This document shows positions 25,357-58,689 of a DNA stretch of 64,000 nucleotides, in pieces. Below the pieces are notes generated by a model. The model was not told the DNA's origin and ran no database searches. It saw only the letters and a program-made list of their open reading frames with translations. The stretch is from Limnanthes douglasii subsp. nivea (taxonomy: Eukaryota; Streptophyta; Magnoliopsida; Brassicales; Limnanthaceae). How positions within the stretch are numbered: the first letter of the stretch is position 1; every line of letters starts with the position of its first letter. The stretch is taken from positions 221,991,046-222,055,045 of the forward strand of contig JAUPFV010000002.1 of NCBI GenBank assembly GCA_036936605.1, written 5' to 3'. Made by a program: the position numbers and the translations under genes.

Positions 25357-26094
25357 GATTCATGTCATCCATATCTGAGCGGGACTCGCACCTGTCGGTT
25401 TAACTGGTGTCTTCACAACAACGACATCAACCATACCCGTCAAGCCAGTCTTTCTTTTTTTGTGCACAACCAATAATTTCTGATGGAGTCTTAGATTAAT
25501 ACTCAGATTTAACGCAACAAGTTTAGCCACAAGATTCATCTTATATTTCTGGATAATGCCCATGGCCACCTCCATTACTTGGGATTCCTGCTCCTCTAAA
25601 TCCACCTCATCTTGCCTCTTCAAAGCAGCACACTCACCTTTTTTCTCATTCAACAAAATCTCCAACTACATTTTCAGCTCCACTACCTCCACTGTCAGGC
25701 CTGCGATCTTCTCAGTTGGCTTTTGCACCCTTTCGGCTTGTTTTACATTCTGATCCAATAGCTTTGAATTTTGGGTTATTATCGTATCTTTCTTCTTCAG
25801 TAGATCGTTATTCTGAGATGAGAAAAAAGTATTTCTACTAACATCTTCCAAACTTCTCTTACGAATGGCATCCCTCTCATCACAAGTCCCAAGAAAATAC
25901 CGATGAAGATCATCGTTCTCCTTTAAGCCCATACCTAATCATTGTTTCGTCGAGCCGTACACATTCTTGAATCAAGCCAACTTGGTCGTTAAACCTTGAA
26001 TCGAGCCAAACAACAACGGGTCTGGCTTCCACTTCTCTATCAAAGAATAATCGACCAATGATATCCGACGATAAGCAAGGGTGTGTGAGTTATA

Positions 26095-26174
26095 CTGAAC
26101 CGGCACCCCCCATATAGTATTGCTAAAAATAACTTTAATTATTCCAATGATATCAAAACAAAAGGAGAACAAAC
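26095..26174 (-). other. Predicted second coding intron of G1 antisense gene (80 bp)
   Basis: Donor ATCAAG|GTTTGT at 26174; acceptor GGTTCAG at 26095. Splicing is phase 0 and joins LELAIK to YNSHTLAYRR. The G4 homologue reads ..ELTIE at a GTAAGG donor (57751). Confidence 0.55.
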
Positions 26175-27182
26175 CTTGATAGCTAATTCCAACTGTCATT
26201 GCAAAATTGCTGACATCAGCATCATATCATAAAATGATAAATCACCACTATGGCGGAGCTGATCCATCATAACCTATGAAGCTCTTTGCATCACCAGTTT
26301 TAGAGAGGGAACTTCCTCAAATACTCTACCAGCCCTTTCAGCTTCACTACTTTACCTTTTTAGGAGCAGATTATCGACCAACACAATGTTCACAAAGGAG
26401 GATCCTGACCCCAACCCATTGACAAATTCCTTCATCCGCTGCACCACTCCCTTAGGGATTGCCTTTTTCTTTTCCTTTCCCTCGTTTTGAAGAATGGCCA
26501 TGTTTAGCTCTTGGACCTTTCAAGCCTCTCTAACCACTTCTACCTCAGGACCTTTGGCCACATATGTCAGTCGCTCCGCTACTAGGGGTTGTCCACCTGC
26601 AGTATCCCCTAACATGCTATCGATCTCCTCTTCATCTACCAGCATCATCTTCCTTTGGGAAAAAAAGCATTGCATTGATCACCATCTTTCTCTTCTTCGT
26701 CGAAGGACAATCGTTCACATCCTCTGCATTTTTTTCACGAGCACGCAAGCCCTATTCTCTTTGTTCATCTCCCTTGGAAACCTCGACCAACGCCCCCACA
26801 GGCCGTTGACCCACTACCTCTTCAACATTGTCCTCTCCCTCAGGGGTAGATGACAACCCACTAGCCTCTCTTGCCTTTCTCCCTTGAGGCACCGAAAATC
26901 CGATGTCGGTGTTGTTTTGTTCCTCATGCCTCTGCTCCATGAGAGCACACAGTCTCTTTAGTGATGTCACATCGCCACTTCTAACTATAATTACCATGCC
27001 GTCCCCTAAAATCTTCAGCTCAGGCACTCACCAAAGTCTCGATTTCAAATAATTAATGGGGCAGAATACTTGTGTACGATCGAGTCCCCAAACACTGTTG
27101 GCAGTAGCGGCTAACTCTGTTAAGGGATTCACCGAACCCTTAGGTCTCCCCTCCTTGCACCACTCTTGGTATTTACCTTTAC

Positions 27183-27263
27183 CTGCAAAAACCCAGTGAT
27201 AAAATTACAACATAATACAACTACAACATAATAAAAAATCTACGCAACTACTAATCATCTTAC
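27183..27263 (-). other. Predicted coding intron of G1 antisense gene (81 bp)
   Basis: Donor AAGT|GTAAGA at 27263; acceptor TTTTTGCAG at 27183. Splicing joins WKVK to CKGKYQEW (phase 1). The position is equivalent to the introns at 56618-56701 (G4) and 41681-41764 (G2). Confidence 0.7.
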
Positions 27264-27857
27264 ACTTAACCTTCCAACGTCTCTCTAGTTGTAAATTTAT
27301 AGAAGAATTTTCATGCTCCCAAATCCCAGAAATATATAGAAACCTATGTTTCTAGTTCTTGTCAAAGGTCGGCAGTTCAACAATATGCCTGGCCCCAGTT
27401 AGCTGCAAGTAAAATAAAGGTGAACGCGCTAAGTTGGAAATGTTTATTGCTACTAAAATCTCACCTAGGAAGATGAGTATGTGAAACAATTTCACTATGT
27501 TTAACAACGTCTTCCAACCATTCGTTGTAAGCTACGTAGGGCATATCTTAACAAAACTGAAAAAATCCCTAATCAACGGAGGCACGGGGAGACGCAGACC
27601 CCAGTCAAAGACAGTGGTGTAAAGACATGCGTCTCCTTGCTTAGTGGTATAAGGTTGATCTCATGCACAAGGCACCCTGATCGTCACATCATCAGGCACT
27701 CCATACCTAACCCTAAGTGATCCATTGGTTAAATAACCATATTTAAGTGTTATTTTAGCAAAATACTCCTACAAAAATTAGGAAATTTCATAATCTGAAT
27801 CGCCAATTACAACAGTCTTCTTCTTCGTATTTTTCTAGCGCACCATGGTTTGACAGA

Positions 27858-28065
27858 CTGCAATGACACAAGAACGGTCGTAAGAATTAAGGTATTATCC
27901 TATTCTACGATGATTCAGATTCACTGTCAAGGTAGCCCATCTATAGCAAAACATCTCAAGATCAAACTCACATATAAGTTTAGCACATCCTATCGCTACA
28001 AAACACGTTAATTCTCCAATAAAAAACAACCCGAATAATAGATAATTCAAAACACAGCAACATAC
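27858..28065 (-). other. Predicted 5'UTR intron of G1 antisense gene (208 bp)
   Basis: Donor TAG|GTATGT at 28065; acceptor TCATTGCAG at 27858, followed by 11 bases and the ATG. G4 has the same arrangement (55860-56040). Confidence 0.65.
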
Positions 28066-28289
28066 CTACAAAGTGAAAACTCTATGGATCCTCTTTATCG
28101 AATACGAAATACTTAGTAATGTACCAGTAAAAATTGAAGCTTTTTGGGATTTTCTCTGCAAATAACAAAGCACTAAGTTTTTAAAGAGAACATTATCAAA
28201 TGAATTGTGAAATCTTTCTTAAATCTATCTTCAATTTCAAGCCACGTGGACCAGCAATTCAACCGTCAAAATTCACTTGTTTCAAGACA

Positions 28290-28420
28290 CACCATTTATC
28301 GAAAGATTAAACGCCATTATATAATTTTTTAAATTTAACTGTGAGAATATCAAAACCCTTAATACACGCTTTACATCATGCGCTATCACGTCAAAAAACC
28401 TGCCACGTCATCCAAACACA
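28290..28420 (-). promoter_or_regulatory. Candidate promoter of G1 antisense gene
   Basis: On the minus strand TTATATAA (28324-28317) lies about 250 bases before the intron donor. Upstream are two ACGT-core elements, GGATGACGTGGC (28413-28402) and TTGACGTGAT (28395-28386), of the kind bound by plant bZIP factors. Prediction only. Confidence 0.4.
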
Positions 28421-28490
28421 TCTTGCTTTACATTAAATATAATCAAAAACATTATTTCATCTACCAACTGTTACCTAGTTGATCAATGGA

Positions 28491-28502
28491 CTAGGGGGGC
28501 CC
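28491..28502 (+). other. G1 polypurine tract
   Basis: CTAGGGGGGCCC directly before the 3' LTR start TGATAAGG. G2 and G4 have closely similar CTAGGGGG tracts. Confidence 0.8.
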
Positions 28503-28973
28503 TGATAAGGTTGGTAATATCTATAGATATATCATAAGAAAGATGTGAACAAAGATTAAAGTTGGATTGATCCAATCAAAACAAGCAGGAAAAGTCTAAC
28601 CTAATATAAAGTCGAGCAGTCACAAAGACGGAAAACGTCTTAGGCACAAACTAAATCGCACTCGGAAAAGAAAACAGATACAAAACAAGGATGAGCCGAG
28701 AAAAGACGATACGAACCTAAGAGATCCCGAACGAATAAAGCAAATAAGGTCGAGCGGAGCTGACATGAGCCCGAGTAGAGTCAAGCCAAAGCAGAGCCGA
28801 GCCGAGCCCAGTCCAAAGAGGATCAATTCATAACAGAGTCGAGCAGAAGTAAGCTCTAGAAGAACCAGGTAGATACTTCGACCGAGCATATGGTATTCTA
28901 TATATTAATGGTGCGGTCGTCTCAATTACGCATTAGGAATAATAGAAATGAAGATTATTAATAAAGTCAAATA
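28503..28973 (+). repeat. G1 3' LTR
   Basis: TGATAAGG start, aligned with the 5' LTR to near 28973. The last two bases are TA rather than CA. Flanks (ATATT left, AATTT right) are not a convincing target-site duplication. Confidence 0.8.
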
Positions 28974-29149
28974 AATTTATGGGTCAACCTAGGTAGACAA
29001 TACACCCGTAGTGATGACCGCCAATTTAGGATCTACGTGCAACACCAATAGGGCCACGTAAACAATGATCATACTGTAACTGCTATAAACAATATAAATA
29101 TTGGATCTTTAACACATCATTGTATCTTCTTCTCGAATCAATAAAAAAT

Positions 29150-29800
29150 GACTACTTTGGAAAATATTTGTTAGGGTTTCTCGTTAACAATAGGTTGTCC
29201 TTTAATTTCAGTAGTCCAATTATGCTCAACTATATTAAGAAAATCTTAGTGTTGTACCCACTTATTTTGAGATTTAAAAGAAGCCTTCATCAATCTATGA
29301 CTCTCCTCTATTGAGATATAAATAAGAGTATTATCTGAGCATGTTCTAGGCATGTACTTTACCCTAGTTTCTTCAAAGTAATAATCCCAAGAAGCGTCAA
29401 ATAACATCATGTCTAACGTCTTTCAGATCATGTTATTAGACCATATATATTTAGTTCATATGTAGCCTTCATGCTCTATATAACAAACTGAAATGGTATT
29501 ATTGAAATCTTCTAGACTTTTTAAACATAAAGAAGAACATGAAAGTTGTTCATGACCAGATGAGATGACATTAAAGTCTCCCATCACAAACTACTGATCT
29601 GAATTATCAAGTAACTTGAATTGCAGAAATCTATTTGTAAGGAAACTTTTATTAAAATGTGTCTTGTGTCCTAAGTAACAATATTTATTTCACCTGTAAA
29701 CTTAAAAGAGTCTAAAAATTCTAAATATAGTTTAATTGATTTGTTTAGCGTTAGTAAACTTTCCAACTAGGATAAATTTTGTTGATTATAGTAGTTTCTC
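29150..29800 (-). pseudogene. LINE endonuclease fragment
   Basis: The minus strand reads MGDFNVISSGHE (29584-29549), the catalytic GDFN block of the APE-type endonuclease of plant L1 LINEs. Then follow IWSNNMI-x-KTLDMMLFDASW (TWSN..+R+DR block) and MPRTCSDNTLI (the SDH block, with H replaced by N). The usual order is kept with several stops. No RT region is attached. Confidence 0.7.
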
Positions 29801-29873
29801 CTTGTCTTTTGAAGTAAACTGTAAGGCTATATTATCTCATCTTTCTTGAATCCTATAATGTTCAAGAATAGGT

Positions 29874-29898
29874 TATATATATATATATATATATATAT
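29874..29898. repeat. (TA)n microsatellite
   Basis: Uninterrupted TA repeats. Confidence 0.95.
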
Positions 29899-29899
29899 G

Positions 29900-30680
29900 A
29901 TCTTTCATCATTGTTTGACAAATTAAAGATAAAATTGTTACTTAATTCAAAATTTTAAATGTTACAAAATCGAATCGATCATTTGTTATTTTGATTGCTT
30001 CTTCCATTTTTTTGGCGGGAGAGGATACTTTCAACCTTGTTCTTGTCATGTTCTTTTTGAAAGCTCTGCTACTTTTGTAGATCATGTCTTATGATGAATA
30101 AATCGTATTTATTATGGATAATGCTTGTTGCAACTCTCAAACAATTTCTAAATCTATGTTAATCATGTAGAGGCAAGGAGCCAAATTCTATATCTTGGCT
30201 TGACTACAAAGAATCAAAACTCTCGTGTTGAATCCTTCTAAGAACCTTGAGTCCCTAATCACTACCACTCTTGATTTTCATTTAAAATTCATAACCTAAA
30301 ATATGAAAAATTATTATAAACAAAATCATTAAAAATTTATTAAAATTCTAATAAATGACGCTCAAACCTCAAAAAAAAAAAATCAATATAAGAAATATGA
30401 GTAGGTTTAAAAATTATTACTAAATAAAAAGAAACGTTTCGATGATAGTAACCAAAATATTACTAAATAAAAAAATAGTTTCTGTCTTTACATAATTTAA
30501 GATTCCAACCATTTTTACTACTAGTACTAACAATAAACTAATGAAGACTGTAAAAATGGATAAAGATGGGCATTATTAAATATAAACTAATAAACGTTAT
30601 AAAGATGGCTATTAAATATTTGGTAACGGATGCCAAAAGTACCTGTTACCAAAACTTGAGTAATAATAATAGTAATAATT
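29900..30680. other. AT-rich upstream region of the peptide gene
   Basis: No coding signal. 5' part may be further LINE debris. Confidence 0.4.
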
Positions 30681-30686
30681 ATAATC

Positions 30687-30694
30687 TATATAAA
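30687..30694 (+). promoter_or_regulatory. TATA box of the cysteine-rich peptide gene
   Basis: TATATAAA, about 100 bases before the ATG. This leaves a 5'UTR of about 65-70 bases for a start some 30 bases downstream. Confidence 0.6.
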
Positions 30695-30790
30695 CTAAGC
30701 AACTTAAGCCCAAACCATACAAAACCTAATAGATCTTAAGCTTTCCATACATCGATCACTTTTGTTGTGAGAATTGAGAAAAATATAACC

Positions 30791-31131
30791 ATGAAGAATT
30801 ACGCAATTTGTATGGTTTTGGTTTGTATTATGTTTGGAAATCTTTTTCATTCGGGTCAATGTAAGTGTTTTTATATTTTATTATTGAGTTGAGGTTTAAG
30901 TATTTATATGCTTCTACTAAGAGATGATTATAATAAATAATTAGAATTATTGTGTTTGTTAAATTTAAATTAGGTGCTACCGGCGGTGTTGTTGGAAGCG
31001 AAAGCTCATCATCGAATGCTGCTTGTACTGCAAGCACATGCGATGGTGGTATCCCGTGTTGGTGCTGCGGTACTAGATCTCCTCAATTCTGTGCTTTGTC
31101 TGAGGCGGTATGCAAGCAAGAGTGTCATTAA
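30791..31131 (+). CDS. Small secreted cysteine-rich peptide (ESF1/MEG-like), two exons
   Basis: Exons 30791-30860 and 30974-31131 encode 75 residues with no stop or frameshift. Residues 1-23 are a signal peptide: a short basic start, then a hydrophobic core (CMVLVCIMFGNLF), then HSGQ. The mature part is Ser/Gly-rich and then has cysteines at 41, 46, 52, 54, 55, 63, 70 and 74: C-x4-C-x5-C-W-C-C-x7-C-x6-C-x3-C. Cys24 is split by the intron. This eight-cysteine pattern with a C-aromatic-C-C motif resembles the plant Embryo Surrounding Factor 1 / maternally expressed gene peptides, which signal from endosperm to embryo; other LCR-type peptides are possible. TATA box, intron and AATAAA are in place, so it is probably a live host gene. 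It is the only one seen here. Confidence 0.8.
30861..30973 (+). other. Intron of the cysteine-rich peptide gene (113 bp)
   Basis: CAAT|GTAAGTG donor, AAATTAG acceptor, AT-rich. Phase 1; it interrupts a Cys codon just after the signal peptide, a typical place in secreted cysteine-rich peptide genes. Confidence 0.85.
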
Positions 31132-31208
31132 ACATAATACTCAACCACCGCTGCTGTTCCTTTATCATTCATAAACACTTTTATAATAATATATGAAATC
31201 GTATTATC

Positions 31209-31214
31209 AATAAA
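31209..31214 (+). terminator. Polyadenylation signal
   Basis: AATAAA 78 bases after the stop codon, repeated in overlapping form (AATAAATAAA). Confidence 0.5.
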
Positions 31215-32178: not shown

Positions 32179-32216
32179 CAAATCACGCGCCTATTGCCAA
32201 ATCACGCGCCTATTGC
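32179..32216. repeat. Perfect 19-bp tandem duplication
   Basis: Two identical 19-base units (CAAATCACGCGCCTATTGC). Confidence 0.95.
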
Positions 32217-35880: not shown

Positions 35881-35899
35881 CAAAATTCTGAGTCTTATT

Positions 35900-40293: not shown

Positions 40294-40301
40294 TATAAAT
40301 A
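40294..40301 (+). promoter_or_regulatory. Candidate TATA box of G2 antisense gene
   Basis: TATAAATA on the plus strand, about 95 bases before the first long coding frame. It lies inside the element between polypurine tract and antisense gene. Confidence 0.5.
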
Positions 40302-40389: not shown

Positions 40390-43314
40390 TTGTTGTCAAG
40401 ATCTTCGCCGGAAAATTCAAATTTTCTGATCAATCTTCATCCTCTCCGATCCACCCCCACTTGGTTTCTGAGAAAGAAACCAAGATCCAAAAAATCGAAG
40501 GCCATTTTACCCAAATCACCAAGATCTTCAGACTCTGATATTAATTTAATATTCGGATCATACGACTATGTATGTATCACACAGAGAGCTGAGGAATACA
40601 AGAGAGCAGGTCTGATCAATAGCCTCAAAGTTGGAACTACCACTGAAACAATCTATTACAGTAACTTCGATCCTACTAAAGTCCCAAATCTTTCACATTC
40701 CCTAGAATCGAAGAATAATCCTCATCTAAAATATCAGGGCCTAAAACACCTCGAACCTCCTCATCTCAAAGCATAATTTCTCTCTTAAAATTGAAAAAAA
40801 TAACCCTTCTTCGGAAAAATCTTCACTACCCAAACGAAAAAATTTCATTGCCATTAGAGATGAATCAACAATCATCCAAAAACTTTCTCCCCCAAATCCA
40901 ACTACTAACGATCCTCCTCGAAGAGAAGTAATGGAAGAGGCCCCTCAAATTCCCAACTCTTTTACAGAAACAATTATCCCAACTTCTCGAAACCCTCAAG
41001 AAAAAATTCAAAAGCCAATGAAGCTGACTCGGAGGCTACGAAAACAGACCTTGAAGCTGACTCTCAAGAAGAAGCTGATATTTGCTCCATCTCCGAAGAG
41101 GAAAGAGAAAAAATTGAGAGGAACCTAAGGAACCTCGAAAGCAAGTATATTATTGCCTTGAAGAAATTTTGCTACATATACTACAAAGAAAGCCAAGCCT
41201 CGGCTCTTAAGAAGCAATGGGGAATGGGAGAAGGCATAACTCTTAACCTGCAAAAAGAAGGACAAACTCCCCTTAACTGCAAACATAACGAATTAGTGGT
41301 ATACCCAGAAATCATCAACTTGGGTCTTTGATTTCCACTAGATCCGATGATCGTGGAGTACTTCGAACTCCTCAGTTTATGCCCCACCCAAGTGACACTG
41401 AATCAATGGTTCACCCTGATATCAGTGATCATGGAATCTCATCTATCGAAGATTCCCATCAGCATTAAGGACTTCATCTCACTGACTCAACTTTCAAAAG
41501 GTCCAAATCTTCCTTTCTATTATCTCACGTTGATGGATGCCCTCACGATCATCGATGATCTTTTGGAGGCTAACGGATTCTGGAAAGAGAAATGTTTCTT
41601 TATATATGGAGCTTGGGAGAATGGCAAAGCGATTTCCGAAGCAAACCCTTCGAAATTAACTCTTGTCTGGAGGAGCAATCGTAAGTTTTTCGAATTTTTT
41701 TATATTTTGATATCAAATCCATCTTCTTCTATTTTAACTTTTTGTTTTGTCAAATTTGTACTAGAAATTTCGAAGCGTTATTCAACTCGTCGAGAGGCTG
41801 CTAAAAATATTTTCCAAAAACTCGCCGCTTGGGCTAAAGAGGAATGGAATAATTCATTTTATACTGCTTTTCAGCCCATCAATTTCCTTCATAGTCACAT
41901 GTTCCCAATCAAAGAAGGTGGGCTGCCCCCTCAAGATCTATTATTCGAACCAGATCTGAAGCTTGTGTGCCAACGAATGTCTCAGCCTAACTGCAAAGTC
42001 TTTCTTCCTATTCACAATAGATCGGATAGCCACTTACCCAAAAAAAAAAGAATAAGTCACCAAAGAAAAGAAGGGTAAAAAAGCAGCTAGCACATCTGGT
42101 GCTAACCCTTCCACGCCATCGAAACCAAAGCGTCAAAAACGAAAGATTTCCGAACAACCTCTCTCACCCATCAAAGAGGGAAATAATCAAGAAACATCAT
42201 CAAAGAAAAATAAAATGTCCTCTGATTCTCTTAGAAAGAAAAAGAAACAGAAGAAAATCACTTCGTACAAATTGGTTGATAAGAACGAAGTCACTGTTGA
42301 TGAATACGCACAAAATCCTACCATCGAAAATCAATCAGGCAAGAAAATCCTGTTATCATTATTGAAGATGGCACCTCCGATGAGAATCAAGCCATTGTAG
42401 CCTTCGACCCCAACATGTTTATTAGCTTCGAAGATACCAAAGCACTTACTAGCGAAGAAGATCTTGTTCTTCAAGTGATCCAAAGCCATATGCTTAACTT
42501 TGGAAGACCATAAACAGTTGAAACCTCTCCAAAAGCTACTAACCCTCTTGAGCCTATCACCCCAATGGTTCAAGATCCAAGCACATCTGAACTTCGTGTT
42601 CCTACTCCAAATCCTGCCATTTTTTTCGCTCTTCAACCATTTGCCGAACTTGATGTTGTGACGAAGAAACTTGCTTCCCAAGTCGAAGCTTCTCAGACTT
42701 GTCTAAAGCAACTGGCCAAAGATTTGGTTTAATACAAGGAATCTTACGAAGCCGAGAAGAATCTTAGAGAAATTATGCACAGCAAAGTAGCTGATCAATT
42801 TCATGCTTATGAAATAGCACGGTCCGAACTAATCAAAGGTATTTTGTGCGTAAAGAATCATTTTCGAATCAGCCACATTATGGATACTGAATTGCTGACA
42901 AACGCCCACGAAAAAGAGTTAACGGAACTCAACACCAAACATGCTAATGAACTAGCCGCTGAAAAAGACAACTCCAATAAGCTTCGAACATCTCTCACTC
43001 TTTGCGAAACAAAGAACAAAGAATTTTCGGATGACATAGCTAAATTGAAGGAGAATTTTGAATCTGAAAAATCTGCTATAACTGCCGCTGAAGCTGAAGT
43101 TTCAAAGGATATGCAAACAGCTATCATCGTCGGAAAAGAAGATGCAACTATTCTTCTTCTTTGAGAACTTCACGCTGCCTATCCAAAAATCGACCTAACC
43201 AGCTTTTGGAGTGATATCCCTGAAGAAAAACTCCCAAGCGAGGCTTTTGACCCTATTCCCAGCTCTTCATCTTTAGAAGATGAATCATCTGAGGAGGAAG
43301 AATCTTCTAAATGA
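40390..43314 (+). pseudogene. G2 antisense accessory gene (gypsy-type transposon domain + coiled coil)
   Basis: Lies opposite to pol. The first frame (to 40776) is basic and Ser/Pro-rich and lacks an ATG, so the true start is unknown. A frame from about 41000 contains an acidic EEEREKIE stretch and YYKESQASALKKQWGMGEG, then after one TGA (near 41330) the domain IVEYFELLSLCPTQVTLNQW, FWKEKCFFIYGAWE, and KLTLVWRSN. After the intron come RYSTRREAAKNIF and LAAWAKEEW. A frameshift in an A-run near 42045 leads to a Lys-rich linker (KKKKQKK, possible nuclear signal). The C-terminus (42775-43314) is a coiled coil ending in an acidic ESSEEEESSK tail, with the TGA at 43312-43314. It is homologous in layout and core motif to the G1 and G4 genes. 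The function is unknown. Confidence 0.75.
41681..41764 (+). other. Predicted intron of G2 antisense gene (84 bp)
   Basis: Donor AATC|GTAAGTTTTT, T-rich interior, acceptor TTTGTACTAG. Splicing keeps the frame and turns SNRKFF.. into SNQISKRYS. It has no in-frame stop and its length is a multiple of three, so it is also readable as coding. Same position as the introns in G1 and G4. Confidence 0.65.
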
Positions 43315-43939: not shown

Positions 43940-45230
43940 CTACTCCCAATAAAGCTTCAAGTGTTGGATATTCCACGGATGTTGAAGCATCCTTCCCTTA
44001 AAATCACAAAGATGATAAGACCCCGGCTTAATTTTTTGAACGACTGTATAAGGCCCTTCCCAATTCAGAGCCATTTTTCCGAGGCTCTTCTCCTTTGTGT
44101 GCAGGAAAACGTTTCGCAACACTTTATCACCTTCTTTAAATTATCCTCTCTTTAGCTTCGAATCATATCTATTTCTCATAAGAGTTTGATACCGAATTAC
44201 ATTCAGATGAGCTCAAACCCTTTTCTCCTCGATTAAATCCAAATTAGCCCTTCGAATTTTGTCATTAGATCTTTCAGAATATTGAGATATTCTAAAAGAT
44301 GACATCGTAGATTTGATGGGACTGAATGCATCCATACCATATGCCAAAGCAAAATAGGTCTCTTTTGTAACTTCTGTTAGAGTTGTTCGATAAGCCCAAA
44401 GCACCTCTTGCAAATAGCTTGGCCATTTCCCTGCTGCCTAGATAAGTTTTTTTTTCAAACCATCTAAAATTGTTCTGTTTGTCACTTCTACTTGTCTATT
44501 GGCTTGAGGATAAAAAGGCGTCGAAAAGCATTGTTGAATTCCTTTAGAAATACAAAATGCAGTCATTTTCCTGTTGTTAAACTGAGGGCCACTGTCTGTT
44601 GTAATCCTCAGAGGAACTCCAAAGCGACAACAGATACTGTTCACATTAAATTTGATGGCATCCTTTGCCTTTGTTCTCGATAACGGTTCTGCCTCTGCCC
44701 ACTTTGTAAAATAATCAACCGCTACAATTATCATTTGTCTTCCCCGAAAAGCCATAGGAAAAGGTCCCACCAGATCAACTCCCCACTTATCAAATGGTAT
44801 AGCCTCTGATATAGACATAAGTGGTACAACTGGTCTGTGAATAACATTGGAAAATCTCAAGCAAGTATCACAATCTCAGACTAAATTCTTAGCATCGTTC
44901 ATGATCGTAGGCCAGTAAAACCCTGTAAGAAAAACTCGACGTGATAAAGCTTTAAACCCACAATGAGCTGACCCTTCACCATCATGCAACTCTGACAGTA
45001 CTTCTTGTGATTCTTGCTTGTTAAGTATCGCAATAATGGCCTGGTCAATGCCTTTTTATATAAAATCCCGTCCAAAACTATATATCCGAAGGCTTTACCC
45101 CTTAACGTTTTGGCCAATTGTGAATCATATGGTAGTATTCCTTGAGTCAAAAAAATAAGGATATTTGATAGCCAATCGCGTCGGCTTTCATCAGTGGTAA
45201 AAAATTATTCTATGTATTCACATTGGCTAG
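43940..45230 (-). pseudogene. G2 integrase
   Basis: The N-terminal region is at 45150-44870, with a frameshift near 44880. The catalytic core on the minus strand reads FDKWGVDLVGPFP (about 44800), ITTDSGPQFNN (about 44600) and QVEVTNRTILDGL (about 44475): all three D, D and E are kept. Then AYRTTLTEVTKET and the C-terminal part 44122-43940 (NWEGPYTVVQKIKPGSYHL), ending HLKLYWE. One stop near 44440 and the frameshift are the main defects. Confidence 0.85.
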
Positions 45231-45690
45231 ATTAAGTAACAATTGAAGGATTTTCTTGTAGCAAAATTCTAGGATATTCTTCCTTGTAATCAACATTTGC
45301 TAAAGAATCAGCCACCGTGTTACTTCCTCTCCCAATGTATTCCACAACAACGTTTTCAAACAGAAGCATTAAATTCCGAAGCTCCCGAAGATACAAAATC
45401 AAACGATCCTTTTTTGCTTCGGAAAACCCGGATACCTGATTTGCTAATAGTTGAGAATCTGTTTCCAAACGAACTGAAGTAGCCCCACAAATATTTTCCA
45501 ATCTCAAACCTGCCAAAGTAGCTTCGTATTCAGCTTCATTATTCGAAGCATGAAAGCCAAATTTAATTGATTGAACCATTGTTTCTCCCGTCAGAGCTAT
45601 TAATTGAACCACAACACTGGACCCTGAAATATTGGATCCTCCATCTGTTCGAACAACCCATCTCGAATCGACAGGTTTGGATTCTTTAAT
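45231..45690 (-). pseudogene. G2 second (archaeal-like) RNase H
   Basis: Part of the open frame 45801-45232. RWVVRTDGGSNISGSSVVVQ (first catalytic D), FGFHASNNEAEYEATLAGLR (E), VRLETDSQLLANQVSGF (D) and GSNTVADSLANV (last D) are all present in order. This complete second RNase H follows a first one at 45690-46310, the arrangement known from Tat elements. Confidence 0.8.
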
Positions 45691-46310
45691 TTCTTCTTCA
45701 TCTGATCGGCTTGAATCGAATTCAACAAAGAAATCTGCCAATGCTTGTGCTTTTATCGCCGTTCGAGGTGTAAATAAGATATCACAGTCTCCCAACTCCA
45801 CTAATTATTTGGTCATCCTCCCCGAAATATCAAGTCGTTGAAAAACATTTTAGGGGAATGAAGTTCGAACTTTGATAGTATGAGCTTGAAAATATGGACG
45901 CATCTTCCTAGCAACAATCACCAACGCTAATGCCAGCTTTTCTAATTTTATATATCTCTTTCCTGCTACTACTAGACTTTTACTAACGTAATACACCGAC
46001 TTCGGAATTTTTGAATCTTCACTGATTAACACTGCGCTTAGTGCAAAATTTGATACCGCGATGTACATAAATAGTTTCTCCCCGTTTCGAGGCTTTGCTA
46101 GAATCTCTGGTGATAATAACAGTTTTTTAATGTTCATGAAAGCTGCTTCACATTCCAACGTCCATTCGAACCTGTTGGGTCCTCGTAAGACTTGAAAGAT
46201 AGGAAAACATTTGTCATAAAATCTTGAAAAATATCGATTAAGTGTCGCTAACCTTCCTATCGAAATTTGCACTTCTTTGATTGATCGAGGAAAGTTCATA
46301 GTTATCAAAG
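45691..46310 (-). pseudogene. G2 first RNase H and RT connection
   Basis: The frame 46308-45850 carries PRSIKEVQISIGRLATLNRY, PIFQVLRGPNRFEW, PKSVYYVSKSLVVAGKRYIK and LEKLALALV..RKMRPYFQAH. It continues after two stops with MELGDCDILFTPRTAIKAQA (45801). Same reading frame as RT. Confidence 0.8.
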
Positions 46311-46319
46311 CTTTCAGTT

Positions 46320-47170
46320 GTTATGGGTCAGTTTCTATTCCTTTTTCACTGATGATAAAACCCAAAAACTTCACCGATCGAACACTAAAGGTGCATTTTT
46401 CTGGATTTAATTTCAACCTAATCGCCCTTAGATTCAAAAAACCTTCCTCTAGATCATCAAGATGCACTTCGTCCCTTGATCTTTTCACTACCATGTCGTC
46501 TATATATACCTCCATATTTCGTCCGATCTGCGTAGCAAAAGCTTTATTCATTAATCTTTGATAAGTGGCTCCAGCATTCTTCAATCCGAAGGACATTACC
46601 CTATAACAATGCAGGCCCCTATCAGTTATAAAATTTGTGGACTCTTGATCTTTTGGATCCATCTGGATCTGATTATACCCTGTAAAAGCATCCATAAAAG
46701 TTAAGATTTTGTTGCCCGAAGTAGAATCAATCAACTGATCTATCCGAGGAACAGGAAATGGATCTTTGGGACAAGTTCTATTCAAGTTTGTAAAATCCAC
46801 ACACATCCTCTATTTCCCATTCTTCTTTTTTACTACAACTCGATTTTCCGTCCATAAAGGATACTGTGATTCCCTTATGTGTCCGGCCTTAGAAAACCGA
46901 TCCACTTCTGCAACAATTGCTTCTGATTTTTCCGAGGAAAACGCTCTTCTTTTTTAAATTACCGGTTTGACCTTCGGATCTATGTCCAAGCTATGCCGAA
47001 TTACCTCAATAGGTACTCCTGTTACATCTTCTAGCCTCCAAGCGAAGACATCCAAATTTTGAGATAAAAAATAAAGCAATCGTTGACGTAGAAAATGGGT
47101 CAATAAATTTCTGATTCGAAGCACCTTTCCTTCTGAGAAAGTAAACTCCTCTATCTCTTCACTCACCGTT
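46320..47170 (-). pseudogene. G2 reverse transcriptase and N-terminal linker
   Basis: FLSQNLDVFAWRLEDVTGVP (about 47075) opens pol. RESQYPLWTENRVVVKKKNG follows, then 46806-46321 with MCVDFTNLNRTCPKDPFPVP, ILTFMDAFTGYNQI, LKNAGATYQRLMNKAF and an intact catalytic VYIDDMVVK. LNPEKCTF and KFLGFIISEKGIE close the domain. Stops at about 46955, 46811 (probably TGG to TAG) and 46319 are single-base changes in one frame. Confidence 0.9.
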
Positions 47171-47252: not shown

Positions 47253-47259
47253 TAGATGC

Positions 47260-51800: not shown

Positions 51801-51844
51801 ACGTGAATGAGATGATCTTCGTTCAAAAAAGAAATTCCAATCTC

Positions 51845-51878
51845 TATCAGTTATCCGATTGTATCAGTTATCCGATTG
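51845..51878. repeat. Perfect 17-bp tandem duplication
   Basis: Two units of TATCAGTTATCCGATTG. Confidence 0.95.
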
Positions 51879-52049
51879 TAGGGATGCTCCAAACACATGT
51901 ATACAATGTATGTTGGTATTAATGTGAGTCACCTTCAAATATATAAAGATATTTGTACGAACATATGTAAAATTTATACAAGATTCTAGGCTTTTTGTAA
52001 CCGATATTCAGTACTGTTAGTGTTGCTCTCCCTTATGATACGATTTGTT

Positions 52050-52899
52050 GTTGTTTTTTTGTTATCGGTACTTTTTTGGATGATTTGGTATGATTTTTTT
52101 TACCATTGTGTTAGCAAAAATACCGAATTTACTTAGTGGCCAAGATGATACCTCCGTATTTTCTTTGACAATCATGTCGTCGATATAGGCCTCAATGTGT
52201 TGGCCAAGTTGATCTTTAAATATTTTGTTGATTAACGTTTGGTATGTTGCACCCGTATTCTTTAGTCTTAATGGCATGACTTTGTGAAAAAGAGGTGTCG
52301 CTTCGTTTGGAATGTAGTTTGCACCTCATCCGTGGGATATATGGATATTTGGTTGTATTCGGAATAGGAATCCATGAATTACAAAAACTCTTTTCTCGAG
52401 ACGACATCGACCAATTGATCAATTCGTTTGAGGAGGAAGACGTCTTTAGGGAACGCTCGGTTGAGATCAGTGAAATCGATACACATATGCCAGTTCTTCT
52501 TCTTGACTAACACAGGGTTTAATATCCACATTGAGTATTGAGCTTTCCTAATATGCACGAGTTTAATTAGTTTATCAACATATTTAAATATTCCCTCTGA
52601 GTTTTCTGGGAGAAACTTCATATTTGTTGTTGTATAGGTCGCACGTTGGTGTTAATAGTTAGTGAATGGCAAATGATTTTTGGATAAACTCCCGTAAGGT
52701 TTTCGACGTTCCATGCAAACACATCCTCGTGTTTATATAATAGTGCTATGAAATTATGTTTGAATAGTGGGTCGAGTTTGTTACCTACTCGGACGGCCTT
52801 ACCTTCCTCCAGTGCTACACAAGTTTCTTCTCCTAGAGGATCTTCCTCTCCTTGTCATCTCTGGGTCATACATTTCTAAATGGGTGCGATCTTTCTATC
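52050..52899 (-). pseudogene. G3 reverse transcriptase (truncated)
   Basis: The N-terminal linker with YKHEDVFAWNVENLTGVYP lies near 52740-52690. 52621-52379 gives ILNPVLVKKKNWHMCIDFTD and LNRAFPKDVF-x-LKRIDQLVD. After a frameshift, LKNTGATYQTLINKIFKDQL and the intact EAYIDDMIVK follow (52280-52170). The sequence ends about 50 codons later. Confidence 0.8.
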
Positions 52900-53200
52900 C
52901 ATGATGATCCCAAACCCTAGAGTTTGTTAATTGGTATTGGGTCGCTTTAGAGAAGTCAAATGCTATGGTATATCAATGTTTTTCCCTTTGTTAATTACCC
53001 TTGAGATATTGTCGTTGATTCTCAAGATGTCTTCATGGGGTGTAACAATTCCCCTCAAATCATCATTATCGAACGTGAGGTCGGCCACTAGCTCCCGGTA
53101 GTTGTGATACAAAGAGTTACCACCAAGTGGATGTTCATGTCTTTTGATGTCGTTTCTGTCGTGCAGGATCAGCCCCCGAAAAGGGTGTCCCCCCTCCAAA
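52900..53200 (-). pseudogene. G3 protease region, active site deleted
   Basis: NYRELVADLTFDNDDLRGIV near 53100 is the block that precedes the protease active site in G1 and G4. Here it runs into INDNISRVINKGKNIDIP and a stop; the VD-x-GSSANIIF active site found in G1 and G4 is missing. Confidence 0.65.
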
Positions 53201-53339
53201 AAAATGGTGCATAGTCATTGTTGTTTGTCCTTTGATTTTTTAGATCCCTCCCTAGCTGAGGTGCTAGCATCCTCATCCTTCATTACCACACTATTTTTTC
53301 TCTCAACAAACAGAAGAAGATCGTTGTTGTGAATTAACC

Positions 53340-54700
53340 TTTGAATTTATTCTTGCAATTTTCAGAATTTTTCACTTAGGTGACCATGGCCAATTTTATA
53401 CATGCAGAACTAGCGAGGGGACCTCTTGTATGGAGCTACGAATACCTCTAGTCCATGGTACTTAGCCCTCATTTTTGTTTTCTCGTAGATAGTAGCTATG
53501 TTTTCGGTGAGAGACGTAAATTCTCTGCCATGATTATCGTAATAGGATGCGCGTGGTTGACTTACTTTGGGCGTGGACGAGGAAGTTTGGGGCACATCCT
53601 CGTAGCATCTCATGTCACCACTTAGTGGTTTGAGTTTTTGAAACTTCTGCTGGATAGTTGGTGTCAGGTCCTCTTTTTTGAATCATCTACTCGGATAAAT
53701 GACTTTGATCTACCAAAGATTTCGCCCATTGTTTATACCGGGAACTGGATGAGGTCTATGAAGAGGGTTCCATCTCGGTCAAATCCCTGCAACCGGCTCA
53801 ACGCAAGTCGAGAGGGAGTTCATATCCTGGACAAACCTTTGCACATATGTCTTTAACGCATCACCCCTTTGCTTGTACAAATCCATAATAATGTTGCCCT
53901 CGTACTTGTGCTTTTTTCCCCAAAAAAGCGATTTCTCAATGAGACCCATAGGCCTTCAAAATCTTTAATCGATAATTTATGGATATTGTTGAACCAGTTG
54001 AGGGTATTTCCTTTCAAATCGTGGAAAAGGATTTGCAAAGTAAAACACCATCTGGATTGAAAGCCAAACAATTCATGTTCCTGAATTGTTCTAGGTGGTG
54101 TTGGGGGTCCTCTGATCCATTGTACGATTCCATCTTATGTGGTTCGAACGTCCAAGGAAGTTTTCCTTCCATCTTTCATAGTCGGTTTTACCTGATCATA
54201 GTCTACCACCTCCAACTCTTTATCATCACGAGATGCCTTCGGATTGGAGTCTGAATATTTTTTCTTCCTCTACTTCTTGCTCTTACTTTCGCCAGTTCAT
54301 TTGCTTGCATAACCGCAACCTTTGGTCCTACTGGTACCGTTGACCTTACCAATTTTTGGTGAGTGTCTTGCATGTTATAAGGTATCAGTGATTGTATCAA
54401 AGCATTGCTTAGCCTCCTCATCCCTTTCTAGCTATTCAGAATATGCACGTTAGAGGGGGTGGAATACATACCTAGGTTTAAGAGGTTATCTTTTTTAGAT
54501 GTTCAGTTATTCTTTCCCTCATCGTTTATCTGAGATTGATCGTCATTCTCAATCGCGGTTGCGTAAGGCCCCTGATGTCCAACCAGATCAACTCTCATAA
54601 CTCCTTTGCTGCTCAGAGAATTTTCTAGCGTTCCTTGAACGTTGACCCTCTTTACTTGTGCACCTTACCCCTGGATAAATTGGATTTTACAATGACCTTA
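53340..54700 (-). pseudogene. G3 gag
   Basis: The frame 54421-54203 holds VMQANELAKVRARSRGRKN. Then come NGSEDPQHHLEQFRNMN (about 54130), LKGNTLNWFNNIHKLSIKDF (about 54010) and LRNRFFGEKS, and a MDLYKQRGDALKTYVQRFVQ-like region near 53890-53840. 53613-53410 is the Ser/Pro-rich C-terminal part. The blocks lie in different frames with stops. Confidence 0.75.
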
Positions 54701-54780
54701 AAACGAAAAAAATCATCACGATACCATTGCACAAACCATTTTGCAATGGGTTGGAGACCGAAAGTGATGGTTATGTTAAG

Positions 54781-55441
54781 TGTTACGGGAATAACAAGTT
54801 GTTTCTAAAGTAAAAATACGTGATTTAGTCAGAAAAGAGACAAGGTAAAAGATCATATCATTCATCAAATGAATCTCCTTACTTATAGTTCTCCTAGTTA
54901 GTGGGCAGTTACATTCGTATTTAATTATACTCAATAACCCACTAACTCAATAACATCACTTCTCCTATAATTTCGGATAAACTGCCTAAACGGTTTGACT
55001 CACAGTTTATAGCGCTACTAAATGATGAATGAGAAAACATGTTATTTTTCAATTGTTTGTTTTGACCGAACACGCATGCTAATCCGAACTGTCATGGCTC
55101 TTAAGCGCGATAAGACTTGTGTCGATCTACACGTGTATGAGCTCGCTTAATTGTTTCTGGTCGCTTGGCTTCTCTTTGTCCTTATTCAAGGTCAGTCAAT
55201 TATCTCCAAGCTTGTTCTCTACTTAGTTCGAGGCTGATCGATTATGCACGCATTAGCCTTTGTTTGGTTATTGCATCCTTGGTCTGGCTGATCAACTTAT
55301 CCCTTAGATTATCGTTGGCTCATCCTCATTTGTTCGCTCGTTTGATTCTCGTTCCTTTTTTTTGTCTATTGTCTTAGTCCAAGCTCGTCACTTTCCTTTC
55401 CTTCTCATTCAGATGCTTACTCGGGGAATCCCCCCTTATCA
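54781..55441 (-). repeat. G4 3' LTR (661 bp)
   Basis: Minus strand TGATAAGGGGGG at 55441 to ..CGTAACA at 54781. Aligned along its length with 62711-63361. Confidence 0.85.
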
Positions 55442-55456
55442 GGGCACCCCCTAGTT
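55442..55456 (-). other. G4 polypurine tract
   Basis: Minus strand ACTAGGGGGTGCCC directly before the LTR. Confidence 0.75.
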
Positions 55457-56054
55457 TATAGATTTAATAATTTTGGAAAAAATTGATGAACCTATAAAAT
55501 AAATATTACCGTTAAAGGAGGAGTATGGGCGTAGGGTAGGCGCCTGGTTCTCCCAAGTGATTGTTGGCATCATTATTTGCTAGTAGAACGACATGTGTCG
55601 ATGGTGTAATTGTGAGGTTCTGACACAGTCGTATCTGGGATACAACGCCTGACGTTTGAGTTTTTTATACAATTTCCAAGTGTTTGGTGACTTCTTCCTA
55701 GTATATTCCAAGATTTTTACTCTTTAACTTAGTATTTCATTGTCTGATGGATAAAAGAAACAAAAATACGCTCAAGTATTACTGTGTTATTCTTGTTGAA
55801 GAAAAAGGTTATCATTTGCCATCCAAGAGCTCTCTATCGATTTTCGCACCGCAAACCAGGTATGTTATATCTTCAAAAAATGTGATTGTTCGTAGTGTTT
55901 TGTTAGAGTTTAGAACCCTAGATTCTGGAGTGAGGAACTTGTAAATAGGGTATCCCTCAGATATGCATGCTTACCCTACGTCGAATTGATTTCCCTCGCC
56001 CGCTATAATCGTATTGATTCATAACCTTACCTGCTTGCAGTCTCAGTAGAAGCC
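55457..56054 (+). promoter_or_regulatory. Promoter/leader of G4 antisense gene with 5'UTR intron
   Basis: A predicted intron 55860-56040 (181 bp) has donor CCAG|GTATGT and acceptor CTGCTTGCAG, 14 bases before the ATG. TTTTATACAA near 55657 is a weak TATA candidate. G1 has the same donor and acceptor layout. Confidence 0.55.
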
Positions 56055-56617
56055 ATGCCACCAAAAAGGGTGACGAATATGAAGGTAGAAAAAACCTCGG
56101 AGCCTGTGTTTGAGGAAATCAATGCTTTGGAGAATTATTTCTCGCAAATAGCCCTCAAATATATTTATCTAGATGCGTCTGAGGTGACTACATTAGGAAT
56201 AGATATGGCATTCCAGAGAAAGTAACTATAAGAGTGCTCCTTGTAGGTGAGCATCCTTATCATGCGCAAGAAACAGAGACGTGCCAATTCACCATGTTGT
56301 TTGATTCATGACTACTTTAACGTGCTAGGCATCTACCCTACCCAGCTTTCAATAAATGGGTAGACATTGTTGCTTAGCATAATACTGAGCTCACGATTAC
56401 TAGGAATTGATGTGTGCCTACCAGACCTGTTAGTTGCAACCGATGTGACCAAACTTTCCAAAGCCCATTTCTTCTATACCCATTTTAAAAGGACGAAAAG
56501 ATTGTCGAGCTCCCCTCATCAGATAGGAATTGGAAGAATTACTATTTTTTTATGGCAATTGGGAGCATAAAACACCAACTCTGAATCTTCAGTTAGAAAG
56601 GAGGTGGAAAGTAAAGT

Positions 56618-56701
56618 GTAAGCCTCGATAGAACTAGTTGAATATCGAATTATTTTTCGAGTTCTTGTTAACCGGTAACTTATAGCTCTTCGTTTCTGTA
56701 G
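56618..56701 (+). other. Predicted coding intron of G4 antisense gene (84 bp)
   Basis: Donor AAAGT|GTAAGC, acceptor TTTCTGTAG. Equivalent to 27263-27183 in G1; the exon after it reads KTASQNWWKEG, against KGKYQEWCKEG in G1. Confidence 0.65.
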
Positions 56702-57750
56702 GTAAGACAGCCAGTCAAAACTGGTGGAAGGAAGGGAAAGCAAAGTGTTACGTAAATCCTTTAATCAGAATCGGGAACTTAGCCTGTGAAGCGTGGCAAC
56801 AAGACCCCAAACAGTTGTTTACGCGCTACAACTATCTAAAGTTAGGCTTGGGCTCCATGCCAGAATTGGAGGTTGCATCAGACGGTAAAGTGACAATGGC
56901 GGACGGGGTTGAAGCCACGATGGAGCGGATCAGAGCCTTTATAGGAAAAAAATATTGGAAGAATAATAATACTAGGATTTGGCTCGCAGTACCTCAAACT
57001 ACCCGAAAGGGTATTGAAGCAGGAGATTCATCATCTACTCTTGGCCAACCGGGTGGGCAAAGAAAGATAGTGGTAAGTAAAAAGGGGGAAGAGGTCGATC
57101 AAGATGAAGGGAATGCCTCAGTTGTTCAAGAGGTTGGTTAAACAAGTAATGTGCGAGCATAACGAGAAGAGGAAGAGGATAATGAGTCGCCTTCATTGGT
57201 GAAACCTCTGAGGAAAAGACAAAGAGTGATTAAAGATGTTATCTCTTTTGCTGTCAGAAAATTGTGGCTGAGAGATGAGGATAGTGGCAGTACAGAGGCT
57301 GCACTTGGAGGAACAACCTGTTGACCAAGTCACCCGTCACCCAAACAAGAAGAGGGGGAACATCCTGATACTGGGGGAGGTTTGATTGACTTGGTGCAGG
57401 ACAACGGAAAGGAAAAAGATAAGGGTCGGAAGAAGAAAACTATCCCACCAGAGCATGGTAAGAAGATGAAGCATTGGGTTACTACATCGAACATGTCCCC
57501 GTTGACAACAGCAGTGAGAGAAAGTGTTGCACCTCAACTAATACGAATAATAGGGAAACCCAGGGTTGAGCAAAGTGGCGCTGGGACCAGTCAACAGAAG
57601 GTGTCTTTAGAGGAGTTGCTTCCTAAGCAGATTATCATACCTTGCCCCTCCTTGTTTATGTTCGAACAACTTCGTCGAATTCCTAACCTATCGTATTATG
57701 ATGGAATGTCAGTTCTTGAGATCTTACAACGAGAAATGGAGCTCACCATT

Positions 57751-57840
57751 GAGGTAAGGCGATGGACTTTATGTTCTGGATAAAAGGTAGTAACATAAAT
57801 CTAACTCTCTAACTTTGTGTATATTCATCATAACTTAGTC
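57751..57840 (+). other. Possible second coding intron of G4 antisense gene
   Basis: Donor ATTGAG|GTAAGG at 57751 corresponds to the G1 donor at 26174. The acceptor is unclear; the matching G1 CAG reads GTG here, so it may be mutated. Confidence 0.35.
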
Positions 57841-58689
57841 GTATTAGGTTATCGGTGCATGTCTCCGGTCGATCTAGAGGTTATGGAGAAGTGGAGACCA
57901 GAAGCCACGGTATTTGGGTCAGCCAAAACGACCATTGTTGAAGTTATTCGCTTGAAACATGCGTATGCATCAGCAAAGATGACCAAAAACCAAGCGCTCG
58001 AAGCGAAGGCAAAACTGGAGACCACGATGGAAACCCTTAATGAGGCTTTAATATGCAGTGGTGAGAGATGCAAAGACGTATCCAAAAATCACAAGGCAGT
58101 GTTAAAACAGAATGAAGTCCTTTTAAAAAGGAATGATGAACTTTTCGCTCAAAGTTCAAACCTGATGGATATGAACTTGTCTCAATCCAAGAGGGTAGAG
58201 GGGCAAGCTGAGCGAATAGAAAATTTGTCTGCTGATAGCACAAAGTTGAAAGCCGAAATGGAAGAGGGACACGCGGAGCTCGAGCGGGAGAGATAACGGT
58301 GGAAAAGGGACGTGGAGGCAGCTGTAGCGGAGACGGAAACACAAATGCTAATTGTTGTCACTGATATAATAGCCAAGAAGAACAAGAAAGCTATAATTGA
58401 GCTGTTGGTGCTAAATCCTGGGCTGAACTTGGGATCTTTGTCATATCTTGTCCAAAACCCCGTACGACCCCAAGTTCTTGGCATGCAACCTGTTCCGGTT
58501 GTTGAAATTATGACCACTACTGCAGCTGATGTGACTCAATCAGAGCAGAACAAGCCACCCTCTTCCCCGAATACCAAGTTGTGATAGTTTTTGTTCCCTT
58601 GTTTTGTTTTAAAAAAAAAACCTTATGTCACGTTATGTATTCTTAGATACATTTGAACTCATTACTTTGATATTATTTATTCCAAATTA

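What the first reader, a model, noticed from the sequence alone, without database searches (positions are those of the whole stretch)
25357..58584. Three different Tat-like Gypsy elements carry homologous genes on the strand opposite to gag-pol
Seen: G1 (27846-25357, -), G2 (40390-43314, +) and G4 (56055-58584, +) each hold a long coding region between the pol end and the 3' LTR, antisense to pol and convergent with it. All three share a core with PTQ-x4-N-x-W (C before P in G1 and G2, Y in G4), preceded in G1 and G2 by a GL-x2-P-x2-P stretch, then a charged linker and a C-terminal coiled coil. Known: antisense accessory ORFs occur in the Tat lineage and have been linked to a gypsy-type transposon domain. 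Inference: conservation between elements with clearly different LTRs means that the gene was under selection and contributes to the element's life cycle, perhaps as a nuclear or chromatin-targeting factor (Lys-rich linker in G2).
Basis: partly seen in the sequence, partly recalled or inferred. Interest (0 to 1): 0.8.

Follow-up and report, generated by a model that had tools for sequence, protein, structure and literature searches.

The report
Spliced antisense gene in plant retrotransposons
Three old plant retrotransposons carry a related gene on the opposite strand to their other genes; this kind of gene is already known, but here it appears to be interrupted by an intron at one and the same place in all three, and its backward orientation would explain how an intron can survive inside an element that copies itself through RNA.

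Summary
The antisense genes of G1, G2 and G4 are homologous, and all three window copies are broken relics. They belong to a known kind: the antisense 'TRP28' (Transposase_28, PF04195) gene between pol and the 3' LTR of Retand-type (Tat) Ty3/gypsy elements, reported in 97% of recently active Retand clusters (PMC11963269). Pfam's own model gives G2's relatives only sub-threshold matches, but a profile of G2's first-exon domain finds all 8 PF04195-positive loci fetched (of 27 matches in this genome). The donor GT is kept in 29/30, 28/30 and 20/21 copies, the acceptor AG in 27/30, 27/30 and 17/21 (G2, G4, G1 families). Many lengths in the G1 and G4 families are not multiples of three. I saw no mention of this intron in the texts I could read; two key papers are not held. 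Splicing was not tested on RNA, and the protein's function is inferred.

The parts
18498..28988 (+). element G1: LTRs 18498-18976 and 28503-28988 (82% identical), pol about 21138-23885 on +
   Evidence: self-comparison; RT (RVT_1) and sub-threshold integrase matches
25363..27768 (-). G1 antisense TRP28-type gene, broken (several stops and frame changes)
27183..27263 (-). G1 intron 1, 81 nt, donor GTAAGA, acceptor TTTTTGCAG, phase 1
   Evidence: GT in 20 of 21, AG in 17 of 21, window copy included
44337..47121 (-). G2 pol: RT, RNase H, second RNase H (RVT_3), integrase core
40468..43314 (+). G2 antisense TRP28-type gene, broken; 40468 is the place where 73% of 30 copies have ATG (this copy does not)
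40294..40300 (+). TATA box (TATAAAT) 174 nt before the start-codon site of the G2 antisense gene
   Evidence: TATA[AT]A in 83% of 30 copies; present in this copy
41101..41680 (+). G2 exon part with the TRP28-like domain
   Evidence: family profile of 41101-41679 finds the 8 fetched PF04195-positive loci, G1 and G4; median dN/dS 0.12 for 41041-41679
41681..41764 (+). G2 intron 1, 84 nt, donor GTAAGT, acceptor TTTGTACTAG, phase 1
41765..43311 (+). G2 exon after intron 1: conserved stretch, Lys-rich linker, long charged C-terminal part
54781..63361 (-). element G4: LTRs 54781-55441 and 62711-63361 (85% identical), pol homology 58755-60352 on -; it ends before the second RNase H and integrase
56055..58584 (+). 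G4 antisense TRP28-type gene, broken; ATG at 56055 in 80% of 30 copies
56618..56701 (+). G4 intron 1, 84 nt, donor GTAAGC, acceptor TTTCTGTAG, phase 1
   Evidence: GT 28 of 30, AG 27 of 30
57754..57822 (+). G4 probable intron 2, about 69 nt; donor well conserved, acceptor weak (and lost in this copy)
   Evidence: GT 27 of 30, AG 17 of 30

Best explanation
The three reading frames are decayed copies of one accessory gene, the antisense TRP28 (Transposase_28) gene of Retand-type Tat elements. Shown by comparison of copies: the gene was kept by selection on its protein, and it contains what has the comparative marks of a spliceosomal intron, at one fixed place and phase in both lineages. Inferred from that: the gene is a separate transcription unit. 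RNA polymerase II starts near the 3' LTR (a conserved TATA box in the G2 family), runs towards pol on the opposite strand, the transcript is spliced, and a protein of about 900 residues is made (G2: 2844 nt from start site to stop, less the intron), probably nuclear. The full-length RNA that is reverse transcribed is of the other strand; on it the intron reads CT...AC and cannot be spliced, so the intron passes through each round of retrotransposition. Antisense orientation is therefore what lets a retrotransposon keep an intron-bearing gene. Most likely job (inference only): a nuclear regulator of the element, such as a DNA-binding or anti-silencing factor, made from its own promoter even when the LTR is silent.
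For: Homology of the three. A profile of G2's first-exon domain finds the 8 fetched PF04195-positive loci, G1 and G4 at E 4e-20 to 0.0026, while 3 control stretches and the reversed sequences give nothing below E 1. Geometry: antisense to and convergent with pol; pol order RT-RH-second RH-integrase in G2. Selection: median dN/dS 0.12, 0.22, 0.26 (G2) and 0.25 (G4) in the gene frame versus 0.78-1.29 in the two others; outside the query stretch 0.15-0.30 versus 0.66-1.32; stops 0.4-0.9% of codons in the gene frame versus 1.7-12.4% in the five others. Intron 1: donor GT in 29/30 (G2), 28/30 (G4), 20/21 (G1); acceptor AG in 27/30, 27/30, 17/21. Phase 1 in all three (G2; G1 and G4 worked out by hand). 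In G2 the codon pattern is sharp on both sides and absent inside. In-frame stops: 45 per 832 codons in the G2 intron, 20 per 3362 in the exon before it (29 of 30 copies usable). Lengths mod 3 (0/1/2): 17/7/6 in G4, 5/4/12 in G1. T content 53, 36 and 44% in introns (G2, G4, G1) versus 26, 21 and 26% in exons. The donor pentamer is better kept than any five neighbouring columns inside the intron (0 of 71 in G2, 0 of 71 in G4). A conserved donor-type pentamer (70% or more of copies) occurs only there in the 3.25 kb scanned in G2. TATA box in 83%, start codon in 73% of G2 copies.
Against: No RNA evidence: splicing and promoter are inferred from conservation. Pfam's own model stays below its cut-off for the G2 family (E 0.01-0.07 in 4 of 6 proteins, no match in 2) and does not hit the G1/G4 pieces given. 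Profiles of the exon after the intron do not reach across lineages: the G2 one finds G1 only at E 0.09 and not G4 or, below E 1, the 8 loci; the G4 one finds G1 (9e-27) but not G2 or the 8 loci. The codon pattern is also missing or faint elsewhere (G2 40680-40979 and 42480-42539, G4 57530-57589), and around G4's intron 1 the contrast is weak, its first exon being blurred by frame changes. The acceptor AG is less exceptional than the donor (9 of 74 and 6 of 74 column pairs inside the intron as well kept), and my acceptor scan listed 9 other sites in G2 but not this acceptor, which lacks a strong pyrimidine tract. In G2 29 of 30 intron lengths are multiples of three and 5 of 30 are open in frame, so for G2 alone a weakly constrained insert is arguable; that sample was drawn with an unspliced query, and the unbiased search did not complete. 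Copies were picked by protein similarity, which lowers dN/dS, and pairs are not independent. The TATA hexamer is only moderately exceptional (14 of 305 windows as conserved). Intron 2 has a weak acceptor. Nothing tests the function of the protein.
Confidence: 0.8

Rival explanations
1. The stretch called intron 1 is not an intron but a fast-evolving, weakly constrained insert in the protein.
For: In the G2 family 29 of 30 lengths are multiples of three, 5 of 30 are open in frame, and some copies are open right through it (L039, L041, L022).
Against: In the G1 and G4 families, found by queries that lie downstream (the G4 query but for its first five codons), 16 of 21 and 13 of 30 lengths are not multiples of three (one of the 21, L076, does not match at all). 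The donor is the best kept part of the stretch. Stops are nine times as frequent as in the exon before it, and the stretch is T-rich as plant introns are (that is recalled). Both G2 copies with clean flanking exon stretches have a stop or shift in it.
Confidence: 0.06
2. The antisense frames are mere by-products: relics or chance frames opposite a sense-strand sequence, without function.
For: All three window copies are broken, and only 2 of 30 G2 copies have both tested exon stretches clean.
Against: dN/dS of 0.12-0.30 and low stop density are confined to one frame. Decay after insertion is expected for old copies (LTR identities 82 and 85%).
Confidence: 0.03
3. The important product is the antisense RNA (silencing or dsRNA), not the protein.
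For: The review PMC7264820 raises this for antisense transcripts of retrotransposons.
Against: Selection acts on amino-acid positions, which an RNA-only role does not predict; a double role stays possible.
Confidence: 0.08
4. The protein acts outside the nucleus, for example in particle assembly or as an envelope-like factor, rather than as a nuclear regulator.
For: Function is unknown, and the single-sequence fold of the 248-aa piece was useless (mean pLDDT 35.5).
Against: Lys/Arg clusters in G2 pieces; GENE23 of Grande is reported nuclear (PMC7264820).
Confidence: 0.2

Closest known systems
Antisense TRP28 (Transposase_28, PF04195) ORFs of Retand LTR-retrotransposons (PMC11963269; PMC6317226)
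   Same: Same place (pol to 3' LTR), same strand, related domain, same kind of element
   Different: Reported as open reading frames; in the 2025 paper 'intron' does not occur and 'splic' only in its reference list. Here an intron is conserved in two lineages of one genome.
gene23 of maize Grande (from the review PMC7264820; the original paper is not held)
   Same: Antisense accessory gene, own promoter, nuclear protein
Retand ORF4 of Silene latifolia, RIRE2 and PvRetro13 antisense ORFs (PMC7264820)
   Same: Antisense ORF between pol and 3' LTR; ORF4 carries Transposase_28
   Different: Not compared by sequence here
Ogre elements (intron in the sense transcript; PMC6317226 passage)
   Same: Tat relatives with an intron, second RNase H between RH and integrase
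   Different: That intron lies in the sense RNA and is spliced in part of the transcripts; the present one is on the other strand
HTLV-1 HBZ (antisense nuclear protein; PMC11963269 text; its splicing is recalled, not from a call)
   Same: Antisense gene of a retroelement, nuclear, spliced
   Different: No homology claimed; a working analogy only

Membership tests
Retand (Tat clade) element | second RNase H (aRH) between RNase H and integrase | tested here: met
   G2: RVT_1, RT_RNaseH_2, RVT_3, rve in this order. Not shown for G1 (no match for the piece in between) nor for G4 (only its RT and RNase H pieces were scanned; homology to G2 pol ends before it). The feature is shared with Ogre.
Retand (Tat clade) element | long pol-3'LTR region with antisense ORF | tested here: met
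   G1 about 4.6 kb and G4 about 3.3 kb between pol homology and 3' LTR; the paper gives 2.9-6.6 kb. G2's LTR not found.
Retand (Tat clade) element | place in an RT tree with Retand references | not tested
   no reference set of plant RT sequences was on hand
TRP28 / Transposase_28 (PF04195) | match above the curated Pfam cut-off (26.2 bits) | tested here: not met
   G2 family 13.9-16.5 bits in 4 of 6 proteins, no match in 2; no match for the window pieces or the one G4-type piece. Other copies in this genome do reach it (27 matches).
TRP28 / Transposase_28 (PF04195) | homology to proteins that do pass the cut-off | tested here: met
   G2 first-exon profile finds 8 of the 8 loci fetched (of 27) at E 3e-8 to 0.0026, G1 at 4e-20 and G4 at 3e-8; controls above 1
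TRP28 / Transposase_28 (PF04195) | conserved positions named in PMC11963269 (G, P, L, P, N, F) | tested here: inconclusive
   By eye: G and P of the GL..P stretch in G1 and G2, and the N, are there. The P before that N is L, T and I in the window's G2, G1 and G4, though P in many G2 relatives. Numbering was not mapped.
gene with a spliceosomal intron | conserved GT/AG ends, loss of coding pattern inside, same phase | tested here: met
   the loss of pattern is sharp in G2, visible in G1, weak in G4
gene with a spliceosomal intron | spliced RNA | not testable with these tools
   no RNA data

The most novel reading that the evidence does not exclude
The antisense TRP28 gene of Retand elements is a spliced gene whose intron is ancestral to the whole family. 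The element carries it antisense because only there can an intron-bearing gene survive passage through the RNA intermediate. It thereby keeps an independently transcribed, splicing-dependent nuclear factor, possibly an anti-silencing one, that can be made while the LTR promoter is shut.
Probability: 0.4. Interest if true: 0.72.

Novelty: new variant of a known kind. Interest (0 to 1): 0.52.

Why it matters
Antisense genes are a hallmark of Retand elements, and both their origin and their function are called open in the 2025 survey (PMC11963269); the 2020 review (PMC7264820) asks for antisense and spliced transcripts to be looked at. A fixed intron bears on both questions. It implies that the gene lives by nuclear transcription and splicing of its own strand while copies are made from the other strand. 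It argues that the gene entered the element as DNA with its intron or gained the intron there, not as a processed mRNA. It also warns that ORF-based surveys can cut this gene in two, and it offers exact splice junctions to look for in existing plant RNA data.

Tried and rejected
Pfam scan of nine stop-free window pieces: no PF04195. Protein search of public proteins with the G2 piece and with a 441-aa open frame of a copy: nothing. Viral contigs: nothing. A structure prediction of the 248-aa G2 piece (which contains the intron stretch) had mean pLDDT 35.5, so no fold search was made. Simple heptad test for coiled coils: inconclusive. LTRs of G2: not found. Branch points were not tested. An intron at G2 40680-40979, where the codon pattern fades, was considered and dropped, because one copy (L042) is open through that part in one frame. 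In the G4 family an ATG at 55967 in another frame is nearly as common (77%) as the one at 56055, and TATA-like sites at 55493 and 56004 (70% each) leave its promoter open. Intron in the third lineage (L001-L008): a pyrimidine-rich AG at a like distance in 5 of 8 copies, no conserved canonical donor, left open. An exon-1-only search meant to remove the length bias of the G2 sample did not complete. A pattern scan of the window for intron-like stretches found G2's and three others, 4 against 0.95 expected; it was not used. Script faults: wrong gap costs, rerun; stopped after four regions, rest done in 61; one wrong interval in 76. The 'open_frame_aa' column of the genome search did not agree with my own frame lists for several copies, so I do not use it.

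Papers: PMC11963269 read in parts 1-3 of 5 plus a word search (47); PMC7264820 parts 1-2 of 3; PMC6317226 and PMC12786077 passages only; the Grande gene23 paper and a DOI given from memory for the 2011 survey of extra ORFs (possibly wrong) are not held. The searches showed no paper on an intron in this gene, but 45 and 81 listed only the first 15 of 16,077 and 12 of 28,892, most listed papers were not opened, and subscription papers are mostly missing from the library. This is no proof of novelty.
Full report
What is there. The window lies in a 1.78-Gb genome; its size and content suggest a plant. G1 is a + strand element with LTRs 18498-18976 and 28503-28988 (82%); G4 is a - strand element with LTRs 54781-55441 and 62711-63361 (85%); G2 has pol on the - strand (44337-47121) but no LTR pair could be found. 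G2's pol has reverse transcriptase, RNase H, a second RNase H and the integrase core in that order, the order described for Ogre and Retand elements (PMC6317226, passage). G4's homology to G2 pol stops before the second RNase H and integrase.

The antisense genes. In each element the stretch beyond pol codes on the strand opposite to pol. All three copies are broken by stops and frame changes. Alignment of the frames, with X at stops, shows them to be homologous: G1-G4 score 483 (z 105), G1-G2 193 (z 27), G2-G4 100 (z 15) against shuffles. G1 and G4 are close kin; G2 is a second lineage. The motif is PTQ-x3-N-x-W; a stop lies within it in G1 and at its last place in G4. The C-terminal parts of G2 and G4 are not detectably homologous (z 1.4).

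Family. PF04195 has 27 matches in this genome (a lower bound: 150 of 20,529 candidates scored). Six open translations of G2-type copies give sub-threshold PF04195 matches in four and none in two. But a profile of the first-exon domain of the G2 family finds all 8 fetched PF04195-positive loci, G1 and G4, and no control; several of these alignments run about 100 residues, beyond the 69 positions of the Pfam model. Profiles of the exon after the intron do not reach across lineages (G2's finds G1 at E 0.09 and not G4; G4's finds G1 at 9e-27 and not G2; neither finds any of the 8 loci below E 1). So these are divergent TRP28 genes whose shared part is the first-exon domain.

Selection. I aligned the window copy with 29 G2-type relatives (of 150 scored) and with 29 G4-type relatives (of 150). 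In the gene frame the median pairwise dN/dS is 0.12 (G2 41041-41679), 0.22 (41767-42054), 0.26 (42721-43308) and 0.25 (G4 56704-57300); in the two shifted frames 0.78-1.29. Six stretches outside the search queries give 0.15-0.30 against 0.66-1.32. Pairs are not independent, and picking copies by protein similarity lowers the values, but the contrast between frames on the same letters, outside the query too, is hard to explain by that. Stops are 0.4-0.9% of codons in the gene frame and 1.7-12.4% in the other five.

The intron. In the G2 family the codon-position pattern (third position most variable) runs through the conserved core, disappears at 41700-41759 (0.29, 0.29, 0.26) and returns; it is also faint at 40680-40979 and 42480-42539. 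The stretch 41681-41764 begins with GTAAGT and mostly ends in TAG or CAG: GT in 29 of 30 copies, AG in 27 of 30. It holds 45 in-frame stops in 832 codons, against 20 in 3362 in the exon before it (29 of 30 copies usable) and 8 in 774 after it (only 8 of 30 usable). It is 53% T against 26% in the exon. The homologous place in G4 begins with GTAAGC and ends with TTTCTGTAG: GT 28 of 30, AG 27 of 30, lengths mod 3 (0/1/2) 17/7/6; there the change in codon pattern is weak. In the G1 family (window copy and 20 relatives of the 150 scored): GT 20 of 21, AG 17 of 21, lengths mod 3 5/4/12, one fetched stretch (L076) not matching and counted as a miss. The intron is phase 1 in all three (G2, G1 and G4 by hand). 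The donor pentamer is better kept than any five columns inside the intron (0 of 71 in G2, 0 of 71 in G4); the acceptor pair is less exceptional (9 of 74, 6 of 74). A scan for conserved donors over 3.25 kb of the G2 family finds this one alone; in the G4 family it finds this one, the exon start just behind it, and a second donor at 57754, where coding pattern is also lost. The matching acceptor scan is not informative: it lists nine other sites in G2 and not this acceptor. The probable second intron of G4 has a weak acceptor (AG in 17 of 30). Against: in G2 29 of 30 lengths are multiples of three and a few copies are open through the intron; the G2 sample was drawn with an unspliced query, which favours such copies, and the unbiased search did not complete.

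Promoter and start. The G2 family has TATAAAT 174 nt before a start codon kept in 73% of copies; the window copy has the TATA box but not the start codon. The box is conserved but not uniquely so for its surroundings (14 of 305 windows). In the G4 family a start codon at 56055 is kept in 80%, another ATG at 55967 in a different frame in 77%.

How it most likely works. Shown: protein-level selection; a conserved intron-like stretch at one place and phase; antisense placement. Inferred: own transcription, splicing, nuclear protein. Because the RNA that is packaged and copied is the sense strand (established for LTR elements), an intron on the antisense strand cannot be spliced from it and is inherited; in the sense strand it would be lost. 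None of the aligned copies lacks the intron precisely (0 of 30, 0 of 30, 0 of the 20 comparable ones), so in these samples antisense transcripts were not the templates of new copies. What the protein does remains open; Lys/Arg clusters and the reported nuclear GENE23 of Grande (PMC7264820) favour a nuclear regulator. An anti-silencing role is my guess.

What is known. The gene, its strand, its domain and a suggested DNA-binding regulatory role are in print: 97% of Retand clusters carry it (PMC11963269); reviewed in PMC7264820, which also asks for spliced antisense transcripts to be looked for; Transposase_28 in 23% of Retand elements in PMC6317226. I saw no intron in this gene mentioned in the parts and passages read or in the listings of searches. 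The original gene23 paper and the 2011 survey of extra ORFs could not be read, so novelty of the intron is provisional.

Noticed in passing
window 58755-60352 (-): G4 pol homology to G2 stops before the second RNase H and integrase, so G4 is probably an internally deleted element.
   Followed up: partly
window 8417-9541 (-), repeats 1-337 and 8008-8344: Ty1/copia remains (RVT_2 and SH3-like domain) and LTR-like direct repeats, 77% identical.
   Followed up: no
window 11328-11924: An imperfect palindrome of about 600 bases (68.9% identical to its own reverse complement), possibly a fold-back element.
   Followed up: no
window 52164-52753 (-): A further Gypsy fragment with part of a reverse transcriptase.
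   Followed up: no
G000:C1:146934405-146938905: Five matches to the G1 antisense exon at steps of 1058-1059 bases: a tandem array that contains a piece of the antisense gene.
   Followed up: no
L005:1943 (with L001-L008): In a third TRP28 lineage of this genome a pyrimidine-rich AG sits at a like distance behind the domain in 5 of 8 copies; it may be the same intron with a different donor.
   Followed up: partly
window 56702: In the G4 family the exon after intron 1 itself starts mostly with GTGAGG, so donor-like letters stand at both ends of the intron.
   Followed up: no
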